DNA of 62,185 nucleotides from Prochlorococcus sp. AG-418-G23 (GTDB lineage: Bacteria; Cyanobacteriota; Cyanobacteriia; PCC-6307; Cyanobiaceae), in NCBI GenBank assembly GCA_003214195.1, contig QCLY01000003.1, positions 1 through 62,185 of the forward strand. The letters run 5' to 3'. Positions 10,517 through 20,079 of the stretch are shown in pieces. The position numbers were made by a program, and so were the translations under genes. The notes under the pieces are model-generated. The model worked only from the letters and a program-made list of their open reading frames with translations. It ran no database searches and was not told the origin of the DNA. Within the stretch, counting starts at the first letter, position 1. The number at the start of each line of letters is the position of its first letter.

Positions 10517-10666
10517 ATGGCAGATCAGAAACCTTTATTTAAAGCACCTTATGACATTAAGGATGTAAGTGCTCTTTTCGCCATAGTTGCCTTAGTTTTA
10601 ATAATCGCCGCCATAATTGGTAACAACTTATTTGGTTTGTTTCAACAAAATGTAAACTTTGGATAA
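10517..10666 (+). CDS. 49-residue single-span membrane protein
   Basis: ATG at 10517, 49 codons, ending QQNVNFG. A polar N-terminus (MADQKPLFKAPYDIKDVS) is followed by one strong membrane segment (ALFAIVALVLIIAAIIG). It resembles small thylakoid subunits in size but has no signature I can name. It stands alone between the Yfr6 terminator and a convergent nuclease gene. Confidence 0.65.
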   Translation: MADQKPLFKAPYDIKDVSALFAIVALVLIIAAIIGNNLFGLFQQNVNFG

Positions 10667-10720: not shown

Positions 10721-11098
10721 TCATTTTGCCCATTCACACTGGTATGAATACTTTTTATAGATCTTTCCATATCCTTTATTGACTATTAATTCTTGAATAT
10801 TGATATCATCTTTAAAAATCTCAGCTACAGTTCTACCGTATCTATCTTTCGTAATTCTTTTTATTGATACTTTTTTATTTGCTACCAATTGATTAAGAAA
10901 GTCCCTAGCCTCTTTTGCTTTTTCAAGATCAGAATTCTTACCTTTTAATTCGGGAGTATCTATACAAGCTAATCTTAGCTTCTCCCCATAAATCGTTATG
11001 CAGGTATCACCGTCATAACAATTCTTAATATGTGTCGAGGAGAAATCTGAGTTAGCTAATATTTCAAGACTTAAATAAAAAATAAAGAATAAGGACAT
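10721..11098 (-). CDS. Secreted thermonuclease-like (SNase) protein
   Basis: A 125-residue staphylococcal-nuclease-fold protein with an N-terminal signal peptide (MSLFFIFYLSLEILA). The fold motifs are NCYDGDTCITIYGEKLRL with the metal-binding Asp, ACIDTPELKG, and KDRYGRTVAEIF, which carries the second catalytic Arg. Expected action: hydrolysis of DNA or RNA outside the cytoplasm. Shorter than typical SNases (about 150) but all catalytic segments are present. Confidence 0.85.
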   Translation of the reverse strand: MSLFFIFYLSLEILANSDFSSTHIKNCYDGDTCITIYGEKLRLACIDTPELKGKNSDLEKAKEARDFLNQLVANKKVSIKRITKDRYGRTVAEIFKDDINIQELIVNKGYGKIYKKYSYQCEWAK

Positions 11099-11168: not shown

Positions 11169-11210
11169 GGAGACTGGTCAAGTGGTTAAAAGAACTAATC
11201 ATTCCAACTA
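11169..11210 (+). pseudogene. Degraded 5' half of tRNA-Ser (relic 1)
   Basis: The segment keeps GGAG, TGGTC, AGTGGTT and a CTAATC...AACTA anticodon-arm outline in register with the intact tRNA-Ser at 13508. Several substitutions and about one single-base deletion are present. Similarity stops at the anticodon arm; no D-to-T continuation or acceptor 3' strand follows. It reads as the left boundary scar of an insertion into tRNA-Ser. Confidence 0.6.
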
Positions 11211-11390
11211 AATTTAACTAAATTTTACCAACTGATTTGAAAGTTGTTTACAAAGGTACTCCTTAAAAGATTTTTGTCTCAATTTTTCAAAATTCAGTGT
11301 GCGCTAAATATTTTAAAATATACAGAATCTAAAAAATATTTTTATAAACAAAGTTATTTGGGTTAATCTACACAAAAGAGTTTTTTGTTT

Positions 11391-11720
11391 ATGGAAAGAA
11401 AAGGTCAATCAAAATTAGGAATCGCTTCATTATTAATTTCCATATTTACTGCTATAGGTTTATTTATAGTTTTTCTAATTGCAGGTGTTATGGAATCAAA
11501 TACTTATGGAGGAATAGATGAGGAATCTGCAGGAGCAATTATTTTGGGTTTGTTTATTTTCGGATTTGTATTTCTAGATCTTTTAGCTATTGGATTAGGT
11601 ATTGTTGGGATTTTACAAAAAACTAGAGAACGGATTACTGCAATTATTGGGACAATTATTTCTTCAGCAACATTTTTAATTACAGTATCTTTAATAGGTA
11701 TAGGACTTTCAATGGGTTAG
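11391..11720 (+). CDS. Small DUF4190-like membrane protein
   Basis: A 109-residue protein starting MERKGQSKLGIASLLIS, with three hydrophobic segments (about residues 10-27, 43-68, 80-107). The opening followed by a Gly-rich tandem of helices resembles DUF4190-type proteins. A TTG six bases upstream is in frame, but the ATG is preferred. It lies in the first tRNA-Ser-bounded module. Function unknown. Confidence 0.65.
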   Translation: MERKGQSKLGIASLLISIFTAIGLFIVFLIAGVMESNTYGGIDEESAGAIILGLFIFGFVFLDLLAIGLGIVGILQKTRERITAIIGTIISSATFLITVSLIGIGLSMG

Positions 11721-11961
11721 TAATTTAATTTTAAAACATAATTATTAACAAGTAATTAAAGTATTTATCTTTTCTGATCAGTTTAGATATTAATCTACAT
11801 TTTTTTCACGAGGTTAAGTTGTCAATTTTTCAAATTTATAATTGGAAATTTTTTAGAATTTGAATATGAATTAAGTTCTTGACATATTTTTTAAATAGAT
11901 AAATCTATTTATTTCAACTTTTCTTAGAATTATTAATAAAGAATTATATGTTTGAAATTTT

Positions 11962-12294
11962 TTAGTAAGAAAACATTTTACCAAGAGCAGCAAGTTTAGC
12001 CAAAGCATCAAGTACAGAGATCATTTGAATCGAAGTGAAGATGATACTAATACAAATAATTAGTAGTGGGAAAATATTCTCCTTTCGTATTGAATAACTA
12101 TCTCTAACAATATAAGCAAAGAAAGAAATGTTAATTAAATATAGGATGCTTAAAAATAAATTAGTTAATCCGGTAAATATACACAAAAAGCTGAGCAGAA
12201 AAGATATCGGAGGCAAAATATAAATTTGATCTCTTTTTTTAATTGATGATACAAATCCATCAAATTGAGTACCTAAATTTTCGAAATAAGACAT
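11962..12294 (-). CDS. Hypothetical membrane protein
   Basis: A 110-residue protein with a polar start (MSYFENLGTQFDGFVSSIK) and three hydrophobic segments (about residues 28-52, 54-64, 74-93). I recognise no family. It is the second gene of the module between tRNA-Ser relics 1 and 2, opposite in strand to the first. Confidence 0.6.
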   Translation of the reverse strand: MSYFENLGTQFDGFVSSIKKRDQIYILPPISFLLSFLCIFTGLTNLFLSILYLINISFFAYIVRDSYSIRKENIFPLLIICISIIFTSIQMISVLDALAKLAALGKMFSY

Positions 12295-12591
12295 TTTTTT
12301 GATTGTTTTTAAAATTAACTAAAAGAGTAGTAATACTTATTCATAACATGTAGAAGTTACAAATACTAGAGTTATTGTTGATATTAAATCCAAAACTTAT
12401 TTTTATTAATAAATTTCTTGGCCAGATTACTTTTAATTATCACTAATGAGGACTCATCAACAGTCTTTACTTTAAAGTTGAAAAGTTAATTAATTTTTTT
12501 TAGGATAAGTATTTTGGTCATAAAATTTTCTAACCTACGACTAACTTCCTATGCTAAAATTATCGAGTTCAAAAAAATTGAATAGACCCAA

Positions 12592-12634
12592 GGAGGGGTG
12601 GTCGAGTGGTTTAAGGCTCTATTCTTGAAAACTA
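12592..12634 (+). pseudogene. 5' half of tRNA-Ser (relic 2)
   Basis: The 43 bases match bases 1-43 of the intact tRNA-Ser at 13508 with a single mismatch (T for G at 12622). Identity ends abruptly after the anticodon arm (TCTTGAAAACTA) and is followed by unrelated AT-rich sequence. A TAAAAT box sits 37 bases before it, as TATAAT sits 35 bases before the intact gene, so the promoter seems to be duplicated too. Confidence 0.85.
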
Positions 12635-12738
12635 AAGAGTCTCGACTAAATAAAATTTTTAAGATTCTTAAAAAGCATTTATATAACTAATTTCTTAATA
12701 AGACAATATTGATAATCAAAAATAGCTATCAAGACAAG

Positions 12739-12756
12739 GAGACCAGAAAGAGACCA
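12739..12756 (+). repeat. GAGACCA-N4-GAGACCA, left copy
   Basis: Two identical 7-mers at 12739-12745 and 12750-12756, exactly 11 bases apart. The same double motif recurs at 13343-13360 on the far side of the single gene of this module. Spacing of one helical turn suggests a protein-binding site. Confidence 0.75.
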
Positions 12757-12818
12757 TTAAAAATATTTGTTAATTTTGAACTCTTATATAAAATAAGGAA
12801 AAATTATATTCTCTTTTT

Positions 12819-13331
12819 GTGAAAAGATTTTTAATTACTTTATTAGCTGTTCTTGCCTTCCCTAGTGCTGTTAATGCCAAAATTTATGAGACTAGACTTC
12901 CAAGAGAACAATGGTCAAAATCCATATCATTCATAAAGAATTTTATAGGTAAACCAAAATTAGAGAGTATTTTCTGCAGTACCGTGGAAGACTTCAAAAT
13001 TGCATCTTTTGAAGAAAAATGGGCCTCTTTACCTTGGATTTATAATCCTTCAAATGGCAAACTTTATGATTATGATGTTTTTTTAAATGAAATCATTCCT
13101 TTGAATGAATGGAGATCTGATGGTGATGTTTTTACTTATAAATCAAAAATTAAGAATAATATTTTAAAAATTTTAGAGTCAGAAAAAACCCTAAAATATC
13201 CAGATCAAAGATATTTAATTGATTTAAAAGCTATGACATATACAAGTTATAGTGTAGAAGCTCCAGAAGATAAGACTCTTTTAACGTGTGAAAAATTGGA
13301 CTTTCCAAAGGGAGTAAAAATAAATTATTAA
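12819..13331 (+). CDS. Hypothetical secreted protein
   Basis: A 170-residue protein, GTG start, with a clear signal peptide (MKRFLITLLAVLAFPSAVNA, cleavage after residue 20) and two cysteines in the mature part. No family recognised. It is the only gene between tRNA-Ser relic 2 and the intact tRNA, and is bracketed by the two GAGACCA double repeats. A periplasmic or exported location is predicted; function unknown. Confidence 0.65.
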   Translation: MKRFLITLLAVLAFPSAVNAKIYETRLPREQWSKSISFIKNFIGKPKLESIFCSTVEDFKIASFEEKWASLPWIYNPSNGKLYDYDVFLNEIIPLNEWRSDGDVFTYKSKIKNNILKILESEKTLKYPDQRYLIDLKAMTYTSYSVEAPEDKTLLTCEKLDFPKGVKINY

Positions 13332-13342
13332 ATATAAATGTG

Positions 13343-13360
13343 GAGACCACATAGAGACCA
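13343..13360 (+). repeat. GAGACCA-N4-GAGACCA, right copy
   Basis: GAGACCA at 13343-13349 and 13354-13360, period 11, same orientation as the copy at 12739. It begins 12 bases after the stop of the secreted-protein gene and continues into ATTTTT. Confidence 0.75.
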
Positions 13361-13472
13361 TTTTTCAATAAAAAAACCTATTTAAACACTCTTAGTAAAA
13401 TAAAATCAAAAACCATATTTTTATTTTTAAATATCTACTAAATTAGAAAACTTTTCTGTAACTCAATACTGC

Positions 13473-13478
13473 TATAAT
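13473..13478 (+). promoter_or_regulatory. -10 box of tRNA-Ser
   Basis: TATAAT, perfect consensus, 35 bases before the mature tRNA 5' end. The surrounding CTGCTATAATT resembles ATGCTAAAATT upstream of relic 2. Confidence 0.6.
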
Positions 13479-13507
13479 TCAAAAGTCAAAACAAAATATC
13501 TAACCCT

Positions 13508-13594
13508 GGAGGGGTGGTCGAGTGGTTTAAGGCTCTAGTCTTGAAAACTAGCGTGTCTGCAAGGGCACCGTGGGTTCGAATCCCACCCCCTCCG
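13508..13594 (+). tRNA. tRNA-Ser (anticodon UGA)
   Basis: An 87-nt class II tRNA. The acceptor stem GGAGGGG pairs with CCCCTCC before discriminator G13594. The anticodon stem CTAGT/ACTAG encloses loop CTTGAAA with anticodon TGA at 13542-13544. A long variable arm (GCGTGTCTGCAAGGGCACC region) and the T-loop GGTTCGAATCC are present; CCA is not encoded. It is the only intact tRNA in the window and is surrounded by partial copies. Confidence 0.95.
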
Positions 13595-13622
13595 TTGTCT
13601 ACAACTGACTTTTATAAAAATT

Positions 13623-13642
13623 ACTCCTAAGGGAGTTTTTTT
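13623..13642 (+). terminator. Terminator after tRNA-Ser
   Basis: ACTCC-TAAG-GGAGT stem-loop followed by a run of seven T, 28 bases after the tRNA. Short stem but well placed. Confidence 0.7.
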
Positions 13643-13710
13643 GTGGCTCTTTATTTTTGACGATAATTCATTAGATTTCGCGTTATTTCATGTAATCAGA
13701 TTAAGAAAAG

Positions 13711-13729
13711 TGGCACAGATTCGGCACAA
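13711..13729 (+). repeat. GGCACA double repeat, period 11 (left of module)
   Basis: GTGGCACA is followed by GGCACAA, with GGCACA at 13712-13717 and 13723-13728, 11 bases apart. A related pair occurs at 14587-14606 on the other side of the two genes. Confidence 0.65.
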
Positions 13730-13792
13730 CTATAAAAGAATAATTTGGTTGACAGTCGATCTAAAATTGGAGGGATAAAACCCTCTTTTCTA

Positions 13793-14155
13793 ATGGGAAA
13801 TAATAATAAACAAGTAGATAAATTTTGTTGGGTAATAGGTTTTTTTACAGTTATTATTGCTCTTGCAATTTTTAGAAGTACTCCGCCAGACCCATATAAA
13901 TTAGATAAATATGTTGGCTATTGCCTTTTAATAGTTATTTGGATGCTTACAACTAGAACCGAGTTGAAGAATACTAAAAAACTAAGTTTTAAGAAAGTTT
14001 TTAAAGCAAGTTCAGCTGCATTATTGGCTAATGGAACTTTTTATTTGGGTCTATATTTTATTATTCGTGTTTTTCTCATAAATCCTTTATTAATTTTAAT
14101 TCCCCCTGTTTGTTATTTGTCTTATAAGTTAGTTGAGAATACAAAAATTAAATGA
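13793..14155 (+). CDS. Hypothetical membrane protein
   Basis: A 120-residue protein starting MGNNNKQVDKFCWVIG, with about four hydrophobic segments and a basic linker (KNTKKLSFKKVFK). The frame is open 16 codons upstream to a TTG, but the ATG is the more natural start. Its stop overlaps the next gene's start (ATGA, 14152-14155), so the two are translationally coupled. Unknown family, in the tRNA-Ser island. Confidence 0.6.
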   Translation: MGNNNKQVDKFCWVIGFFTVIIALAIFRSTPPDPYKLDKYVGYCLLIVIWMLTTRTELKNTKKLSFKKVFKASSAALLANGTFYLGLYFIIRVFLINPLLILIPPVCYLSYKLVENTKIK

Positions 14156-14523
14156 AACGTTTACTGCTTGCACTTCTATTATTTTCTAGCCCAGTATTGG
14201 CAGAAAAAGAACGTATTTATTATGTTCACACAAGACCTCCTCACTCCTACTCAGGAACATTAGATGACGATGGTTTTTTCTACTATTTCACTAACTCCCG
14301 TGTAAGTGCATCTAAAGATGGATGCGATATGCGAATTGATGGAGCATGCTTTATTAAAACTGATATTCCCGCAAAAATAGTTAAAGAAGGAATTATGAAA
14401 ACTCCAAATTTGTATTGGTGTTCAGAAGCAGTTATTAAGGAAGCTCGAGAGACTCAAACATTGTCTCCAAGAAATTATAGTGGCTATGGAACTTGTACAG
14501 AAAAAGGATGGGTATTTAAATGA
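14152..14523 (+). CDS. Hypothetical secreted protein
   Basis: A 123-residue protein with an obvious signal peptide (MKRLLLALLLFSSPVLA) and four cysteines in the mature part (DGCDMRIDGACF; WCSEAV; YGTCTEKGW), which could form two disulfides. Codon use is less AT-rich than the neighbours, suggesting separate acquisition. It is coupled to the preceding membrane-protein gene by a 4-base overlap. No family recognised. Confidence 0.65.
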   Translation: MKRLLLALLLFSSPVLAEKERIYYVHTRPPHSYSGTLDDDGFFYYFTNSRVSASKDGCDMRIDGACFIKTDIPAKIVKEGIMKTPNLYWCSEAVIKEARETQTLSPRNYSGYGTCTEKGWVFK

Positions 14524-14586
14524 AACGCTTACAAGTTGGATAGAACAATCAAACATATTTATTAATTAGTTTTTTAAAAAATTAAA

Positions 14587-14606
14587 GTGGAACAAAAGTG
14601 GCAAAA
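14587..14606 (+). repeat. GTGG double repeat, period 11 (right of module)
   Basis: GTGGAACAAAA is followed by GTGGCAAAA; GTGG occurs at 14587-14590 and 14598-14601. It resembles the GTGGCACA/GGCACAA pair at 13711 and lies 47 bases before the tRNA-Ser 3' relic. Confidence 0.6.
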
Positions 14607-14652
14607 TTGTTTCATTAAAACCACTAAATCCCTTGATATAACAAAAGATCAC

Positions 14653-14712
14653 CTAATCTTGAAAACTAGCGTATCTGCAAGGGTACCGTGGGTTCGAATC
14701 CCACCCCCTCCG
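14653..14712 (+). pseudogene. 3' portion of tRNA-Ser (relic 3)
   Basis: Sixty bases matching 13535-13594 of the intact tRNA with three mismatches. It runs from the start of the anticodon stem through the variable arm, T arm and 3' acceptor strand to the discriminator G. The 5' half is absent. This is the expected right-end scar of an insertion into the anticodon arm. Confidence 0.9.
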
Positions 14713-14732
14713 TTCAAATATTCGTCCCTGAT

Positions 14733-14758
14733 AGTGTCTGCTGTGTTCAGAGAGTGTC
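14733..14758 (+). repeat. AGTGTC pair, period 20
   Basis: AGTGTC at 14733-14738 and 14753-14758, with a third copy at 14825-14830. Short and therefore weak on its own, but it sits immediately after tRNA relic 3, where paired motifs recur. Confidence 0.35.
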
Positions 14759-14865
14759 AAAATTTTTAAAATATAAGTATTTTCAAAAAATAATCCATCT
14801 TTTTCTTAAAAAACTGCTCCCCTTAGTGTCAGAGTATGTACTCCATTATCAGAATTTTGATTAAA

Positions 14866-14899
14866 AGTGTTGGCGGAATTTTGAAAGTGTTGGAGGAAT
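14866..14899 (+). repeat. AGTGTTGG-N-GGAAT pair, period 20
   Basis: Two 14-base copies (14866-14879, 14886-14899) differ by one base. A third, slightly diverged copy (AGAGTTGGGGGAATG) is at 15314-15328, just after the next gene, so this repeat also brackets a one-gene module. Confidence 0.7.
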
Positions 14900-14924
14900 G
14901 TATTAAATTTGAATAAACTCTTTT

Positions 14925-15311
14925 ATGCGAAATAAATTCTTTGCAAGAAAAAAGACTTTAATATTTTTAATTATCATATTCTTTTTATCAACCAATAAAG
15001 TATTTTCTAGTGAGTATAGATGTTTCTACGGTATAAATAATAGTAAATCTTTTAAATTGGTCAGAAGGAGAAATAATTTCTTATGGGTTACGCAAAGTTT
15101 GAGGGAGTTCCCACTAGAAATTTTATGGGAAAATAAGGAAGAAATTGTATTAGGTGGGAGTTTTACAGTTAGAGATATTGATTACTATAAAGTTTATTAT
15201 TTAGATAAAACATCTTTAAAAGTCAATACTGGAAATATTAACTCTCCAAAAGACTTCAAATCTCAATCAGAGAGTATTCGAAGTCTTTATGAATGCATAT
15301 CTTTAAATTAA
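14925..15311 (+). CDS. Hypothetical secreted protein
   Basis: A 128-residue protein with a long basic and hydrophobic leader (KKTLIFLIIIFFLSTNKVFS, probable signal peptide) and a polar mature part with two cysteines. No family recognised. Flanked by AGTGTTGG repeats on both sides. Confidence 0.6.
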   Translation: MRNKFFARKKTLIFLIIIFFLSTNKVFSSEYRCFYGINNSKSFKLVRRRNNFLWVTQSLREFPLEILWENKEEIVLGGSFTVRDIDYYKVYYLDKTSLKVNTGNINSPKDFKSQSESIRSLYECISLN

Positions 15312-15313
15312 GA

Positions 15314-15328
15314 AGAGTTGGGGGAATG
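15314..15328 (+). repeat. Third copy of the AGTGTTGG-type repeat
   Basis: AGAGTTGGGGGAATG matches AGTGTTGGAGGAATG (14886) at 13 of 15 bases. It starts 2 bases after the stop of the 128-residue gene and is followed by GGGTTCGAT, which resembles a tRNA T-loop but is too short to call. Confidence 0.55.
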
Positions 15329-15381
15329 GGTTCGATTTTTAAAATTAATAATTGTTCTTTTTTTCTATAAGAGCAACTTAA

Positions 15382-15723
15382 TCAGTTTGATTTTAAAAAA
15401 GAACATTTTTTGAATATATTACCTTGTTGTTCCATTGAGGATATTCCATCATTAAAACCTGCATTTGCAATATCGTATTGTCTTTTGCTTTTTTCCTTAA
15501 AATAGTTAACATAATCGGTTTTAGTTCTTTTGGCATAATTAATAGAAATCTTATTATCGACAAATATTTGGCATAAAGTATTCGCCACTCCAGCAGCACC
15601 ACCGTAAAGAAAAAACTCAGACCCATCTTTTGGTTGAACTTCCTGAAAAAAATCTGCCTTGATTTTATTTGATAAATTTGCACAAAAAATAAAAAAGATT
15701 AATATTCCTAATTTCTTATACAT
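15382..15723 (-). CDS. Hypothetical secreted protein
   Basis: A 113-residue protein with signal peptide (LGILIFFIFCANLSNKIKA) and a mature region with a short hydrophobic patch (FFLYGGAAGVANTLCQIFV). Two mature cysteines. No family recognised. A second minus-strand frame of 96 codons overlaps it but has no start context or composition to prefer it. Confidence 0.6.
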   Translation of the reverse strand: MYKKLGILIFFIFCANLSNKIKADFFQEVQPKDGSEFFLYGGAAGVANTLCQIFVDNKISINYAKRTKTDYVNYFKEKSKRQYDIANAGFNDGISSMEQQGNIFKKCSFLKSN

Positions 15724-16131
15724 TTTGTTCCATTAAGTTCTTAAATAATATCATTTTTGACCAATATACAATTTCGAAGTATAAGAGTGAGGCGGGGGAT
15801 TTAACCTTTTTATAAAAATATGCCTGTTAGTAAGTATCTGACAATTTTTAGTGAAATTATCTCAACTAACACCCCCTCTGTCTTCAAAATATTTTCAAAA
15901 AGTTTTATGTTTAGCAATTAAAGCGCAACATTTAGCAATCTCACTTTTTTGGCAAAATTTTTGAATGGATAATAACTCTCCCTATTTGGTACTTTAGTTT
16001 ATTAAAAATTCATAAATTGATATGGATTTCACTTTATCAATAAATTCTTACAAAATTTATCAACTAATTATTAATAAACTCTGAAATTCTTACTTTTTAT
16101 TTTTTTAAAGTAGAATAATAAAAAACTAAAT
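15724..16131 (+). other. 408-base gap without a recognisable gene
   Basis: Very AT-rich. It holds a GGCGGGGGATTT patch near 15790, a CACCCCCTCTG patch near 15870, and the repeat-like TCAAAATATTTTCAAAAAG at 15884 that resembles sequence at 19002. The last 50 bases carry the likely promoter of the SPFH gene (TAGAATAATAA near 16110). No RNA gene or ORF is convincing. Confidence 0.5.
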
Positions 16132-17154
16132 ATGTCAATATCAACCATACAAAATAAATCTAATACTGATTTTCTTATTTGGAAATCACCCATAAATTCA
16201 ATAACAATTGGTTCTCAAATAATAGTCCATGAAAATGAAGAAGCCTTATTATTTGAAAATGGCCAACTACTTAATATCTTTAAACCAGGGAGACATCTTA
16301 TTGAATCAGGCAACATACCAGGACTAGAAGGTCTCATATCAAGGTCTTTTAAAGGAGGTAGTCCAATTATTGTAGAGATCTGGTTTGCTAGCAAAGTCGC
16401 GTCCTTTGATTATAAGTGGGGGACAAGATTACAGGTTAAAGATAATACATATGGTTTAATACTCCCAATGACCTCTTATGGGTCGTACGCATTAAAAATA
16501 TCAGATGCAGCATCATTGATAGTTCAACTAGTTGGGAAAAATCAAAGTCTTTCTAAACTCGAGTTAAAGCAAAAATTAGTTCCACTTTTAGTAAGAAATC
16601 TTAAAGAGGAGGTAGCAGATACTATTGTAGATAAAAAGGCTGATATTTTTACTATTTCTACAGAACTAAGAAATATCTCTAAAAATGTTCAGGATTCCCT
16701 TTTTGATGAATTTAGTAGATTTGGGTTAGATTTATTTGACTTTTATATAGAATCATTAGAAGTGGATGAGAAATGTGAAGAATATAAAAAACTTAAAAGC
16801 AGTTTAGGAGATGCTGCTTCATTGAAATTAAGAGCTAATGCTGCAAAAGATTCAGGTAATTTCTATCAAACAGAACGAAGCTTTGACGCTCTTCAGGCAG
16901 CTGCAGAGAATGAATCAGGAATATCTGGAACCTTGTTGTCTGGAGGTTTGGGACTTGGTATGGGTTTAGGCGCAGGCCAACAGATGGCTAATACAATAAA
17001 CCAAAATACTAATCCGAATCTTAATAATAATCAATCTAATGGACCTGATAATATAGAAGAAAAGCTTTTAAAAATTAAGAAGTTGTTTGACTCTGGATTG
17101 ATTACAGAGAAAGAATATCAAGATAAAAAACTTGAGTTATTAAATCAACTTTAA
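16132..17154 (+). CDS. SPFH-like (YdjI/virion-core-like) protein with SHOCT tail
   Basis: A 340-residue protein. Residues 15-215 fit the SPFH-like family of bacterial YdjI proteins (VHENEEALLFENGQLLNIFKPGRH near residue 31). A Gly/Met-rich hinge (GLGLGMGLGAGQQMAN) and Asn-rich linker follow. The last 35 residues are a SHOCT domain (KIKKLFDSGLITEKEYQDKK), a short oligomerisation motif. Likely a membrane-associated scaffold; the next gene, 17 bases on, is a membrane protein and may be its partner. Confidence 0.8.
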   Translation: MSISTIQNKSNTDFLIWKSPINSITIGSQIIVHENEEALLFENGQLLNIFKPGRHLIESGNIPGLEGLISRSFKGGSPIIVEIWFASKVASFDYKWGTRLQVKDNTYGLILPMTSYGSYALKISDAASLIVQLVGKNQSLSKLELKQKLVPLLVRNLKEEVADTIVDKKADIFTISTELRNISKNVQDSLFDEFSRFGLDLFDFYIESLEVDEKCEEYKKLKSSLGDAASLKLRANAAKDSGNFYQTERSFDALQAAAENESGISGTLLSGGLGLGMGLGAGQQMANTINQNTNPNLNNNQSNGPDNIEEKLLKIKKLFDSGLITEKEYQDKKLELLNQL

Positions 17155-17171
17155 ATATTATTTAATTTTCT

Positions 17172-17804
17172 ATGACTAAAATTGCAAAAAAAGAATTTTA
17201 CGTATTTTTTCTACCTCTATTGGGTTTTTGGGCTCTCTTAATTGCTATTTATCTCGGTAAGGATTTTGAAGAAAGTTTTAAATTAGTTCCGACATTTTTC
17301 TATTTTGTATCTTCAGGACTAACAGTTTTTAATGTAAAAAATCTTATATCTGGCTCAGAATATGATCCAATTGTTAAGAACGCAAAAACTAGAGGGTTGC
17401 TTATCTGTCTTTTAGTTTCAACCTTATCAATACTAGTTGAGTTTTCCTTTGAAGAAAAGAATTTAATTCCTACCATTTTTATTATATTTTCAACAATAGC
17501 AAGCTTCTTCTTAACAGGTTTATTTGATTATAGTAATGAGCAATTAGAGGAAAAATTTCTTGAAAGATCATCAGAGAGGAATTTTTCAATTGAATCAAGA
17601 GATTTATGGGAAGTATATTTAGACCAAATAGAAATTAAATTTGAAAACTCTATTAAAATTCAGAACGAAATTAAAAGAATTAGAAACATACTACCTTACA
17701 GTTCATTTTTTAGAAGTGAGAAATCTAAAACAATAATGGAACAAGTTGAAAAAATTAATAATGAAGATAATTTACTTTTCACACTAAAAAAATATGTTAA
17801 GTAA
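17172..17804 (+). CDS. Hypothetical membrane protein with cytosolic helical tail
   Basis: A 210-residue protein with four hydrophobic segments (about residues 10-28, 38-52, 71-87, 96-116) and a charged, probably coiled C-terminal 90 residues. No family recognised. It follows the SPFH-SHOCT gene by 17 bases and is likely in the same operon. Confidence 0.65.
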   Translation: MTKIAKKEFYVFFLPLLGFWALLIAIYLGKDFEESFKLVPTFFYFVSSGLTVFNVKNLISGSEYDPIVKNAKTRGLLICLLVSTLSILVEFSFEEKNLIPTIFIIFSTIASFFLTGLFDYSNEQLEEKFLERSSERNFSIESRDLWEVYLDQIEIKFENSIKIQNEIKRIRNILPYSSFFRSEKSKTIMEQVEKINNEDNLLFTLKKYVK

Positions 17805-17810
17805 TTTAAC

Positions 17811-18224
17811 CTAAAAGTCAGGGAAAACTTTTACTCCTAATGAAAAATACATTATTAATCTATAAAACCAATACATTAAAAAGAAAAAGAATCCAATATG
17901 AAAAAATTTGCTTTTAAAATTTATTTTTAAAAGCGTTTTTCTTCTCAAAGATAATATCGACCACATAATTAACAATATCGCCAAAGGAGGGCCAAAAAGA
18001 TGAATTTTGAATGCATTAAAAATATCACCTCCTAAACTTGCGCAAATTGATCTTGTTAAAAAACAAGAAGGACATGGCACCCCAGTTGCGTGCCTTATTG
18101 GACAGCTGTATCCTGGAAGCCAAGGAAATTTTTGTTTGAAAAATAAATATGAAGTCAATGATAATGGTAAAAGATAGCTTAAATTCGTAAATTTTTTGCT
18201 AGTTATTTTTAATTTATTACTCAT
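17811..18224 (-). CDS. DUF2752 family membrane protein
   Basis: A 137-residue protein with three membrane segments and the DUF2752 signature, a Cys-containing loop (CPIRHATGVPCPSCFLTRS, about residues 41-59) followed by a small-residue segment and FGPP. The function of the family is unknown. It converges with the preceding gene, 6 bases apart. Confidence 0.8.
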   Translation of the reverse strand: MSNKLKITSKKFTNLSYLLPLSLTSYLFFKQKFPWLPGYSCPIRHATGVPCPSCFLTRSICASLGGDIFNAFKIHLFGPPLAILLIMWSILSLRRKTLLKINFKSKFFHIGFFFFLMYWFYRLIMYFSLGVKVFPDF

Positions 18225-18337
18225 ACATTCTTTAGTTTTATTTCTAGATACAATTTAATCGAAAATATTAAAATTAAGAAATTTGATTGAAAGACTAACA
18301 ATTTTGAATTAATCTAACCAAGATCCTTTAATAAGTC

Positions 18338-18955
18338 ATGGGAACAAAGTGTCCAAATTGTGGAGCGATTAATAAAAGCGATGTTATCTCATGTGAGTAC
18401 TGTGGAACCGCTTTAGTTGTTAAAGACAGTAGTAAATTTAACAGTTTAATAAAACCAAAAGGTAATGTAACTAATGAGCTTTCAAACTCATTAGATTCTT
18501 CGTCATTAAAATATCGTGATCAGGGTAAAGTGGCCCTATTCTTAATCTTTACATGTGGTTTTTACTATTTTGTGTTGCTTGGGGACTGGCTGAATGCTAT
18601 TAAAAAAAATAAAAATAATGTTGGATTAACGAGCGTTGATCCTGGATTAGCAATTTTTCTTACAATAATTACTTGTTCTGCGGCTTCTATCTACTTTAAT
18701 TATAAAGTCGCAAGAGATGCTGCATCTATATCCAGGAAAAGTGGAGGAAATAATTCTCCAATGAGAAATGGTCTGAACCCTCCATTGGAGAGCTTGCCCG
18801 AAATTATCCTATGGGGTGGAATAATATCATTCTTTATAGGACTTGTTTCTGGTGGGGCGTTAATATTCATAGATGTTATTTTTGCAATTTGGAGTACTAT
18901 AGCTTTACAAAAATCAGTGGAATTTATGGTTGGTGTTAAGCCTAGTAATTATTAA
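18338..18955 (+). CDS. Zinc-ribbon protein with DUF4234-like membrane domain
   Basis: A 205-residue protein. Residues 4-26 form a zinc ribbon (CPNCGA ... CEYCGTAL). After a Ser-rich linker comes a membrane domain of three or four helices starting YRDQGKVALFLIFTCGFYY, which fits DUF4234-type proteins. Function unknown. Confidence 0.72.
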   Translation: MGTKCPNCGAINKSDVISCEYCGTALVVKDSSKFNSLIKPKGNVTNELSNSLDSSSLKYRDQGKVALFLIFTCGFYYFVLLGDWLNAIKKNKNNVGLTSVDPGLAIFLTIITCSAASIYFNYKVARDAASISRKSGGNNSPMRNGLNPPLESLPEIILWGGIISFFIGLVSGGALIFIDVIFAIWSTIALQKSVEFMVGVKPSNY

Positions 18956-19001
18956 GTTTTACATTTAAATTTATCCGAATTATCTAAGCATCCTCTCCCT
19001 A

Positions 19002-19022
19002 TCAAAACATTTTCAGAAGTTG
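19002..19022 (+). repeat. TCAAAACATTTTCAGAAGT element
   Basis: Resembles TCAAAATATTTTCAAAAAG at 15884-15904 (about 18 of 21 bases with one gap), and both follow a CCTCT-rich stretch. AT-rich and short, so chance is possible. Confidence 0.3.
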
Positions 19023-19250
19023 TAATTAGTTTCATTGGCTTTTAAATTGATTTAAATCATAATTTTCAATCAAGTTTTGAAGAATTCTAGAAACTTAGCG
19101 TAATCAAAGATCTCGGTAAAATTCATACATTCTCAAATTTTTACTAGTGATTTACTATGGGATTTAAGGAATTTAATTAAGGAATTATCTTCATAGGTTG
19201 CAATCTTTCTTCTTTTTGACTTATTATCTTTACAACTTTTACTAGGATTA

Positions 19251-19598
19251 ATGACTCAAATTGATAAGAATGATTCAGATAATAAACTTGCTAATTGCAA
19301 TTTAGTATTAATGGCTTGTTTATATGCACTCTCAGCCTTTTTAGGAACATTGGGGACTTTAATTGTTTCAGTGATTTATGGCATATATTACAAATATTGG
19401 AAGCCAACTTTATTTATAATTCCTATTGTCTTGTTCTTATTGGTAATAATTGTAATTTTGGCCTTTAGCGGCATCCTAGTTTCAGAGGATTCTGCCTATG
19501 CAGTTGGTTGGTTTTTAGGAGTTATTCCTAGTATAGTTTCATTTTTAATTTTTAGAGATAGAGTATTAACCTTAAGAAAAAGACAAAATTTAAGTTGA
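19251..19598 (+). CDS. Hypothetical membrane protein
   Basis: A 115-residue protein with three membrane segments (about residues 18-45, 50-74, 82-100) and polar ends. No family recognised. Isolated by AT-rich gaps of about 280-295 bases on both sides. Confidence 0.6.
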   Translation: MTQIDKNDSDNKLANCNLVLMACLYALSAFLGTLGTLIVSVIYGIYYKYWKPTLFIIPIVLFLLVIIVILAFSGILVSEDSAYAVGWFLGVIPSIVSFLIFRDRVLTLRKRQNLS

Positions 19599-19768
19599 TT
19601 ATATAAAAATTTGGTTTAATTTAATTTAAAAAAATAACTAAAGTTGGGTTTTAAAAAAGAAAAATGTTTAAACCCAGATGAGCTGTGTTAGTTAAAGTAC
19701 ATCAAATTATCTGCTATAAAATGAAAACAAATAGATTTAAAACTTGCTTGCATGCAGGAACTCCATAG

Positions 19769-19788
19769 TTTTGAACCCTAACCCCTCC
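19769..19788 (+). pseudogene. Possible degraded 3' end of a tRNA-Ser (relic 4)
   Basis: TTTTGAACCCTAACCCCTCC matches the T-loop plus 3' acceptor strand of the tRNA-Ser (13574-13593) at about 15 of 20 bases. The 25 bases upstream show only scattered agreement. It may mark an older outer boundary of the same island. Confidence 0.35.
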
Positions 19789-19878: not shown

Positions 19879-20079
19879 ATGAGCAAAGGCTTCGCCACAA
19901 ATAATTCATTATCCCAAAAATCAAAAAAAAGGTTGATTCCCGCTGAACCTCAGGGCAGATTAATATCTTGGTCTCCTTGGCCACCTGCTAATTTTCAATC
20001 AAGATATCCTGCTTTCCCTTTTGTTCTTACTATATTAATCATTCTTGTTGGGCAATGGTATATATCTCTCCTCAAATAA
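19879..20079 (+). CDS. Small single-span membrane protein
   Basis: A 66-residue protein: basic, polar N-terminus, a conserved-looking middle (GRLISWSPWPPANFQSRYPAFP) and one C-terminal membrane segment (FVLTILIILVGQWYISLL). The layout recalls small thylakoid proteins. It lacks the ExxN-xRxAM motif of high-light-inducible proteins, so I do not call it an Hlip. Confidence 0.65.
   Translation: MSKGFATNNSLSQKSKKRLIPAEPQGRLISWSPWPPANFQSRYPAFPFVLTILIILVGQWYISLLK

What the first reader, a model, noticed from the sequence alone, without database searches (positions are those of the whole stretch)
11169..14712. Stack of small gene modules bounded by partial tRNA-Ser copies
One intact tRNA-Ser(UGA) at 13508 is preceded by two 5' halves (11169-11210, degraded; 12592-12634, one mismatch in 43) and followed by a 3' part (14653-14712, three mismatches in 60). 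The spaces between them are 1.42, 0.92 and about 1.1 kb, each holding only one or two small secreted or membrane proteins, with no integrase. It looks like successive insertions of very small, non-autonomous elements into the same tRNA from both sides, each restoring the gene. Their relation to Prochlorococcus tycheposons is inferred.
Basis: partly seen in the sequence, partly recalled or inferred. Interest (0 to 1): 0.85.

Follow-up and report, generated by a model that had tools for sequence, protein, structure and literature searches.

The report
Tiny gene cassettes stacking at tRNA-Ser
In the ocean cyanobacterium Prochlorococcus, one tRNA gene collects very small gene cassettes on both sides, each rebuilding the tRNA as it inserts; they carry no recombinase of their own, yet one of them sits almost identical in a second genome whose surrounding DNA is clearly more different.

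Summary
Real, and better than first described. tRNA-Ser(UGA) at 13507 has on its left a 0.92-kb module B (12592-13506) and on its right a 1.06-kb module C (13597-14652). Each is flanked by a displaced tRNA half and by matched direct-repeat pairs of 11-bp period, which look like integrase arm sites, at fixed distances. Among 101 Prochlorococcus loci, 9 are empty on both sides. Genome G228 holds module B without A, C or D: 98.5% identical over 1005 bp (tRNA included), bounded by tRNA copies, while upstream core DNA is 91.1% identical. Cassettes of one family share their ends, mostly not their cargo. Module B's repeat pair (loosened) occurs 28 times in 266 genomes, always within 200 bp of a tRNA-Ser copy, never in the reversed control. 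Divergent recombinases lie at this tRNA in 17 of 101 loci; none was found in the window's incomplete genome. The leftmost 'half' (11169) is not above chance; a probable ancestral 3' end lies at 19736. The same genome has eight tRNA-Pro 3' parts in another island. Best reading: recombinase-less cassettes inserting at the anticodon stem-loop, recombinase supplied in trans (inferred): a miniature variant of tycheposon-like tRNA islands.

The parts
10517..10666 (+). upstream core anchor gene (49 aa); starts 341-376 bp before the tRNA in upstream-empty genomes
10721..11098 (-). SNase-domain gene in the upstream island DNA; relatives lie downstream of the tRNA, other strand, in G228 (66%) and L111 (64%)
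   Evidence: Pfam SNase E 1.2e-15
11169..11210 (+). claimed degraded 5' half: not above chance, not accepted as a border
11391..12294 (.). module A region: two small ORFs (11391-11720 +, 11962-12294 -); left boundary unassigned
   Evidence: no tblastn relative in the other 100 loci
12592..12634 (+). displaced tRNA-Ser 5' half = left border of module B
   Evidence: 42 of 44 matches
12739..12756 (+). left arm-like pair GAGACCA-n4-GAGACCA (period 11), about 104 bp after the 5' half
12819..13331 (+). module B cargo: 170-aa protein with signal-peptide-like start
   Evidence: 94% identical protein in G228
13343..13360 (+). right arm-like pair, same word as the left one; the pattern GRGACCANNNNGRGACCA occurs nowhere else in the 1.18-Mb genome
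13361..13506 (+). module B right end with TATAAT-like box (13474-13479); conserved in related cassettes
13507..13595 (+). intact tRNA-Ser(UGA); its anticodon stem-loop is the segment shared by 5' halves and 3' parts
13597..13710 (+). module C proximal end with terminator-like hairpin and T run
13711..13728 (+). module C proximal arm-like pair TGGCACA-n4-CGGCACA
13793..14523 (+). module C cargo: 120-aa membrane ORF and 123-aa secreted ORF (14152-14523)
   Evidence: 123-aa relatives in 25 of 200 genomes, the window's own included
14588..14605 (+). module C distal arm-like pair, 65 bp before the 3' part
14653..14714 (+). displaced tRNA-Ser 3' part = right border of module C
   Evidence: 59 of 62 matches
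14715..19735 (.). older downstream insert(s), incl. SPFH gene 16132-17154; another repeat type at 14867-14899 (GTGTTGGMGGAAT twice)
19736..19788 (+). degraded 3' end of the ancestral tRNA-Ser (probable, by position; weak by sequence)
19879..20079 (+). downstream core anchor gene (66 aa)

Best explanation
Modules B and C are small non-autonomous integrative cassettes. The recombining segment is the anticodon stem-loop of tRNA-Ser(UGA). A cassette carries that segment plus either the rest of the 5' half with a promoter-like region (inserts upstream) or the rest of the 3' half with a terminator-like hairpin (inserts downstream). Recombination with the resident tRNA leaves an intact tRNA at one end and the displaced resident half at the other, so new cassettes stack next to the tRNA and old halves drift outwards. 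Paired 11-bp-period repeats near both ends are the presumed integrase arm sites; the tyrosine recombinase is presumed to come in trans from satellite-like elements at the same tRNA or, more speculatively, from a fixed host recombinase. Shown: anatomy, empty sites, conserved ends with exchanged cargo, one module shared without its neighbours. Inferred: arm-site function, trans action, circular intermediate.
For: Empty sites. Module B in G228: 1005 bp (tRNA included) at 98.5% bounded by tRNA copies, upstream core 91.1%, no A/C/D (same-strand blastn; tblastn finds only SNase 66% and a 71-aa 31% SPFH hit), different upstream neighbour; B alone 900 of 916 identical, RNR gene 91.5%. Single cassettes in otherwise empty sites, G227 and G251. 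Matched repeats at fixed geometry: 13 of 29 upstream modules score >=24 of 28, 10 of 18 downstream >=21 (0 of 60 shuffles for nine, 1 of 60 for the window). GNGACCA pair: 28 of 28 within 200 bp of a tRNA-Ser copy in 266 genomes, reversed control 0. In all 9 genomes with both pairs at one tRNA no recombinase lies between them. Conserved ends. 18 antisense recombinases in 17 of 101 loci; 5 of the 6 such elements with a detected left end have matched repeats. An IMG/VR element carries a recombinase and the repeat pair of cassette L053. Presence of the 165-bp unit follows the RNR tree no better than shuffled labels.
Against: No recombinase with module B's GACCA repeats at both ends was found; none of the family in the window's genome (70.5% complete). 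Module C's repeats resemble but do not equal those of the IMG/VR element. 16 of 29 long upstream and 8 of 18 downstream modules showed no matched repeats by this test, and 9.6% of cross-paired ends also reach >=24 because families share words. In G238 a GACCA left pair faces a right end of another repeat type with a recombinase: a hybrid or decayed stack. No excised circle was seen. G228 is one pair; the tree is one gene and its GACCA test (5 of 53) has no power.
Confidence: 0.8

Rival explanations
1. The modules are decayed remains of full integrase-bearing islands (CIME-like): recombinase and other genes were deleted after insertion, and the tRNA halves and repeats are leftovers that do not move alone.
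For: CIMEs and 130-220-bp gene-less microCIMEs are described so in Streptococcus (PMC7563491 passages); a 165-bp gene-less unit lies next to the tRNA in 21 of 101 loci, with repeats like those of recombinase-bearing elements in the 12 printed. In L048, L078 and L096 an int-less unit or its end lies outside a recombinase-bearing element, as CIMEs do; G238 is a hybrid.
Against: GACCA cassettes share one compact layout with different cargo and no recombinase in 9 of 9; module B has the same 916-bp length in two genomes; many int-less units lie next to the target, whereas CIMEs were 'always the most distant'.
Confidence: 0.17
2. Cassettes spread only by homologous recombination between tRNA-Ser loci after DNA uptake, using tRNA copies or core flanks as homology; no site-specific recombination takes place today.
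For: Flanking genes and tRNA are shared; tRNA fragments of 44-90 bp could serve as homology (inference).
Against: High identity stops at the tRNA copies, with 91.1% core upstream; matched element-specific repeats at fixed distances have no role in this model.
Confidence: 0.1
3. Tandem duplication of the tRNA region or single-cell assembly chimera.
For: Partial copies in direct orientation; the window's genome has 61 contigs.
Against: Interposed DNA differs between copies, sites empty in relatives, same architecture on single-contig genomes such as G050, G182, G041.
Confidence: 0.01

Closest known systems
Tycheposons of Prochlorococcus (Hackl et al. 2023, Cell; not held, recalled; secondary passages PMC10872708, PMC11389934)
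   Same: Elements at tRNA genes of the same genus, tyrosine recombinase at the tRNA in larger relatives, cargo genes, some phage satellites
   Different: About 1 kb instead of the quoted 4-200 kbp, no recombinase found inside, insertion from both sides of one tRNA
CIME / microCIME (cis-mobilizable elements, PMC7563491 passages)
   Same: att-flanked, recombinase-less, tandem accretion; 130-220-bp gene-less forms resemble the 165-bp unit
   Different: CIMEs are decayed ICEs/IMEs and lay most distant from the target; here many int-less units lie next to it, with conserved ends and exchangeable cargo
tRNA genomic islands of the Islander type (PMC4383910 passages)
   Same: regenerated tRNA plus displaced fragment, anticodon-centred crossover, tandem arrays
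   Different: Islander requires an integrase gene and found 5' fragments in 159 of 3919 islands; here both kinds flank one tRNA and the units have no integrase
Integron gene cassettes (from general knowledge)
   Same: 1-2 genes per unit, no recombinase, recombinase in trans (here inferred), arrays with the newest next to the platform
   Different: attC and IntI not involved as far as seen; tRNA half instead of attC

Membership tests
Tycheposon | deep-branching tyrosine recombinase gene inside the element (recalled from the abstract) | tested here: not met
   PF00589 none in G000; window without hit. Larger elements at the same tRNA have divergent ones.
Tycheposon | integration at a tRNA gene with a restored tRNA | tested here: met
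Tycheposon | size 4-200 kbp (PMC10872708 passage) | tested here: not met
   0.92 and 1.06 kb
Tycheposon | dispersal in vesicles or phage particles | not testable with these tools
   module C protein gave no relative in viral contigs, which is weak evidence
CIME | flanked by att sites, no recombination genes | tested here: met
   att function inferred
CIME | derived by deletion from an ICE or IME | not tested
   modules were not scanned for conjugation genes
Islander-type tRNA island | tRNA fragment in correct orientation plus integrase gene inside | tested here: not met
   fragments yes, integrase no
Integron cassette | attC site and IntI | not tested
   no attC search was run; borders are tRNA-derived

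The most novel reading that the evidence does not exclude
A tRNA-based, integron-like capture system: tRNA-Ser(UGA) and tRNA-Pro(UGG) are docking platforms at which recombinase-less cassettes with exchangeable cargo are traded between cells, served in trans by satellite recombinases or by the conserved hemH-linked host recombinase of the same deep family, and able to capture chromosomal operons such as the 11.6-kb urease/urea-transport cluster.
Probability: 0.25. Interest if true: 0.9.

Novelty: new variant of a known kind. Interest (0 to 1): 0.72.

Why it matters
Prochlorococcus genomes are streamlined, yet their islands turn over fast. A 1-kb cassette class with recognisable repeat signatures would let one read which recombinase moves which gene, shows gene-sized exchange below the size range quoted for tycheposons, and predicts testable circles and empty sites. 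Two genomes appear to have their urease/urea-transport cluster relocated into such an insert, linking the mechanism to nitrogen nutrition in the ocean.

Tried and rejected
Tandem duplication and assembly chimera: rejected. The 11169 copy as a border: not supported. Viral contigs: no relative of the module C protein nor of recombinase I158. Module B protein relatives: 7 of 200 genomes (window's own included), mostly short matches to the signal peptide; over more of its length only contig C6 of the window's own genome (residues 48-168, 31%) and G168 (70-168, 24%). A recombinase with GACCA repeats was sought by pattern in 266 genomes: 28 pairs; no recombinase in the 12 of 28 hit stretches (3 kb or less each) read for genes; of four wider stretches read, one (G238) has a recombinase, with another repeat type at its own end. 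Pfam gives no family over its cut-off to the cargo of B or C; NCBIfam, given the B protein and the 123-aa C protein, none either. A shared leader sequence (12 places in the genome) turned out to be common before island genes; I first took its main island on contig C6 to lack cassette structure, but a later check found eight tRNA-Pro 3' parts there.

Limits: one genome per species, so no within-species test; the 100 genomes fetched were those with convenient tRNA places, from the 200; the phylogenetic test uses one gene (53 of 102 rows, the rest without a full RNR in the fetched stretch). An earlier count said 12 of 19 downstream modules; recounted it is 10 of 18.
Full report
WHAT IS THERE. The window is contig C3 of a 1.18-Mb, 61-contig, 70.5% complete genome. 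A named collection searched with four recombinases from this locus returned 11 loci: 10 titled Prochlorococcus, one Synechococcaceae; three of those contigs have the same length as contigs of my unnamed same-genus genomes, so the genus is almost surely Prochlorococcus. tRNA-Ser(UGA) is intact at 13507-13595. A 5' half lies at 12592 (42 of 44) and a 3' part at 14653 (59 of 62); neither is chance. The third copy claimed at 11169 is not above chance. A worn 3' end at 19736-19788 is weak by sequence (38 of 62 ungapped against a null maximum of 33; local alignment not significant), but lies 90 bp before the core gene that follows the tRNA in empty genomes, so I take it as the ancestral 3' end, with an older insert of about 5 kb (14715-19735).

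EMPTY SITES. I fetched stretches of up to 20 kb from 100 of the 200 genomes and compared them with the window. The upstream core gene starts 341-376 bp before the tRNA in 17 of the 64 loci where it was in reach; the downstream core gene starts 70-125 bp after it in 38 of 91. Nine of 101 are empty on both sides (341-364 bp and 71-85 bp). The window is filled on both sides (2990 and 6282 bp). In L039, L055, L066, L068 and L069 the outermost 5' half keeps the empty-site distance from the core gene (344-363 bp), as expected if new DNA enters between the resident half and a new tRNA. G251 shows the simplest case: one 0.8-kb GACCA cassette, 5' half 343 bp after the core gene start, downstream side empty.

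RECOMBINING SEGMENT. Most 5' halves end at tRNA positions 40-48 (extremes 38 and 52); 3' parts that start before position 40 begin at 28-34. The overlap is the anticodon stem-loop. Module B brings a 5' half with a promoter-like end, module C a 3' half with a terminator-like hairpin (sequence). Anticodon-centred crossovers are common for tRNA islands, 2083 of 3919 in Islander, where 5' fragments are the rare kind, 159 of 3919 (PMC4383910, passages).

ARM-LIKE REPEATS. Module B has GAGACCA-n4-GAGACCA at both ends and nowhere else in its genome under GRGACCANNNNGRGACCA. Of 53 upstream modules 29 were long enough to test; 13 have matched pairs at the two ends (score >=24 of 28). Random cross-pairing of ends reaches this in 9.6%, because families share words. 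GACCA pairs start about 104 bp after the 5' half and 162-167 bp before the tRNA. Of 18 downstream modules 10 score >=21, with proximal pairs 111-114 bp after the tRNA (126 in L109) and distal pairs 64-67 bp before the 3' part; 0 of 60 shuffles reach nine of them, 1 of 60 the window's. GNGACCANNNNGNGACCA occurs 28 times in 16 of 266 genomes, reversed control 0; all 28 lie within 200 bp of a tRNA-Ser copy.

CASSETTE NATURE. All-against-all comparison of 33 modules of cassette size: module B shares 126-173 bp on the left and 165-181 bp on the right with six others (L040 only left, L064 only right above the listing cut); module C shares 170 and 126 bp at 88-89% with L043. Middles mostly differ; shared cargo was seen in L051/L068/L109, L096/L101 and L040/L095. 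Cargo is often one or two small genes, several with a start like MKRFLLPLLAALALPTAVNA.

MOVEMENT. In G228 module B is present (1005 bp with the tRNA, 98.5%), upstream core DNA is 91.1% and downstream core 80.1% identical, and A, C and D are not found; its upstream neighbour is a 165-bp unit. Module B alone is 900 of 916 identical, the RNR gene 91.5%. On an RNR tree of 53 rows the 165-bp unit (13 of 53) needs 11 changes, shuffled mean 11.9 (61 of 200 shuffles as low); downstream emptiness (17 of 50) 14 against 14.4 (90 of 200); GACCA (5 of 53) is too rare to test. So presence does not follow descent of this one gene.

RECOMBINASES. 17 of 101 loci hold 18 antisense tyrosine recombinases (16 of 18 are 381-414 aa ORFs with the stop 185-230 bp from a tRNA copy; L069 lies 699 bp away, L086 is a shortened ORF). 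The two of them scanned match PF00589 only below its cut-off; four aligned ones, I221 included, keep R, K, R/H, H and Y. Of six such elements with a detected left end, five have repeats matched between ends: TTCCGA type, period 11, or GGTGGACT/GATGACT type, period 14. The 165-bp unit (next to the tRNA in 21 of 101) has TTCCG-type repeats, worn in some, in the 12 printed. IMG/VR record L221 has a downstream element with recombinase I221, a VapE-like gene, a weakly terminase-small-subunit-like gene, and the repeat pair GTGGCTCACTTTCGGCTCAC of cassette L053; a close I221 relative was seen in 1 of 265 genomes. For GACCA cassettes no recombinase is known: none between the pairs in 9 of 9 genomes with both pairs at one tRNA. 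A 389-aa recombinase with the catalytic residues lies beside a ferrochelatase-like gene (name recalled) in the three loci whose neighbours I printed, and ORFs of 386-392 aa occur in all 14 loci read; 210 of 265 genomes match I221 at E<=1e-10, the window's does not.

BREADTH. tRNA-Pro(UGG) has displaced parts on both sides in L217 and on one side in L211. The window's own genome has eight tRNA-Pro 3' parts on contig C6 (17.8-44.7 kb), four on each strand, most beginning at position 29 or earlier; no intact tRNA-Pro was found in this incomplete assembly. In G136 and G103 an 11.6-kb insert between a 5' half and tRNA-Ser carries urease and urea-transport genes (names recalled), with GACCA-type pairs at both ends, exact in G136, worn in G103; the urease gene queried is single there and beside this tRNA, while in complete genomes such as G127, G171, G050 and G182 it lies over 100 kb away (150 of 200 genomes have a match, some only fragments).

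KNOWN KINDS. The tycheposon paper was not held; what I say of it is recalled or from passages in PMC10872708 and PMC11389934. CIMEs and microCIMEs (PMC7563491, passages) are the closest recombinase-less relatives. PMC8776855 (passages) reports tRNA-Leu attP sites in 11 of 13 integrase-bearing T7-like cyanophages. PMC2784084 (passages) describes pseudo-tRNA-Met copies in a Prochlorococcus island; PMC12416821 (one passage) only names tycheposons. Listings (open-licence papers only) showed no title or abstract start on recombinase-less 1-kb cassettes at this tRNA; I read passages, not whole papers, so this is no proof of absence.

VERDICT. Modules B and C are real, mobile-looking, recombinase-less cassettes on both sides of one tRNA: a new miniature variant of a known kind. 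Trans mobilisation is the likeliest mechanism but is inferred.

Noticed in passing
L235:6282-6446 and L131 (G136:C6:6282-18021); L234/L107 (G103): Urease plus urea-transport genes sit in an 11.6-kb insert with GACCA-type ends at tRNA-Ser; the urease gene is single in both genomes.
   Followed up: partly
G000:C6:17829-44710 (L205-L207): Eight tRNA-Pro(UGG) 3' parts, four per strand, in another island of the same genome, without an intact tRNA-Pro in the assembly.
   Followed up: partly
L222 (IMG/VR 3300030451_002253): T7-like phage record with RNA polymerase and integrase genes carries tRNA-Ser(UGA) positions 31-89 as likely attP; its flank is 73% like the distal end of the L046 module. Published T7-like cyanophage sites seen are tRNA-Leu.
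   Followed up: partly
L144, L150, L153: A 389-aa tyrosine recombinase with catalytic residues lies beside a ferrochelatase-like gene; possible trans-acting enzyme.
   Followed up: partly
window 13749-13767; L205-L208: Leader TTGACARTCGATCTAAAAT (up to 2 mismatches) recurs 12 times in the genome (control 0), before several small island genes: a shared promoter-like element.
   Followed up: partly
window 14518-14540 and L096, L101, L105, L109 near distal ends: A start-of-gene remnant like ATGAAACGCTTAC (MKRLL) often follows the cargo, as if cargo genes had been swapped behind a common signal peptide.
   Followed up: no
L048, L069, L078, L086, L096, L097 left ends: A second anticodon-arm-like sequence follows the left repeats of these elements by roughly 30 bp.
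   Followed up: no
L095, L127 just after the tRNA: About 80 bp like a downstream cassette end is fused to the core flank at a short shared word: likely deletion scars.
   Followed up: no
L268 (G238:C2): GACCA left pair after a 5' half, but the right end at the tRNA has 14-bp-period repeats and a recombinase: hybrid or decayed stack.
   Followed up: partly
L217, L211: tRNA-Pro(UGG) with displaced parts on both sides in L217, one side in L211.
   Followed up: partly
L243 (G138:C1:35172-38189): A broken tRNA-Ser copy with a GACCA pair about 31 kb from the intact one.
   Followed up: no
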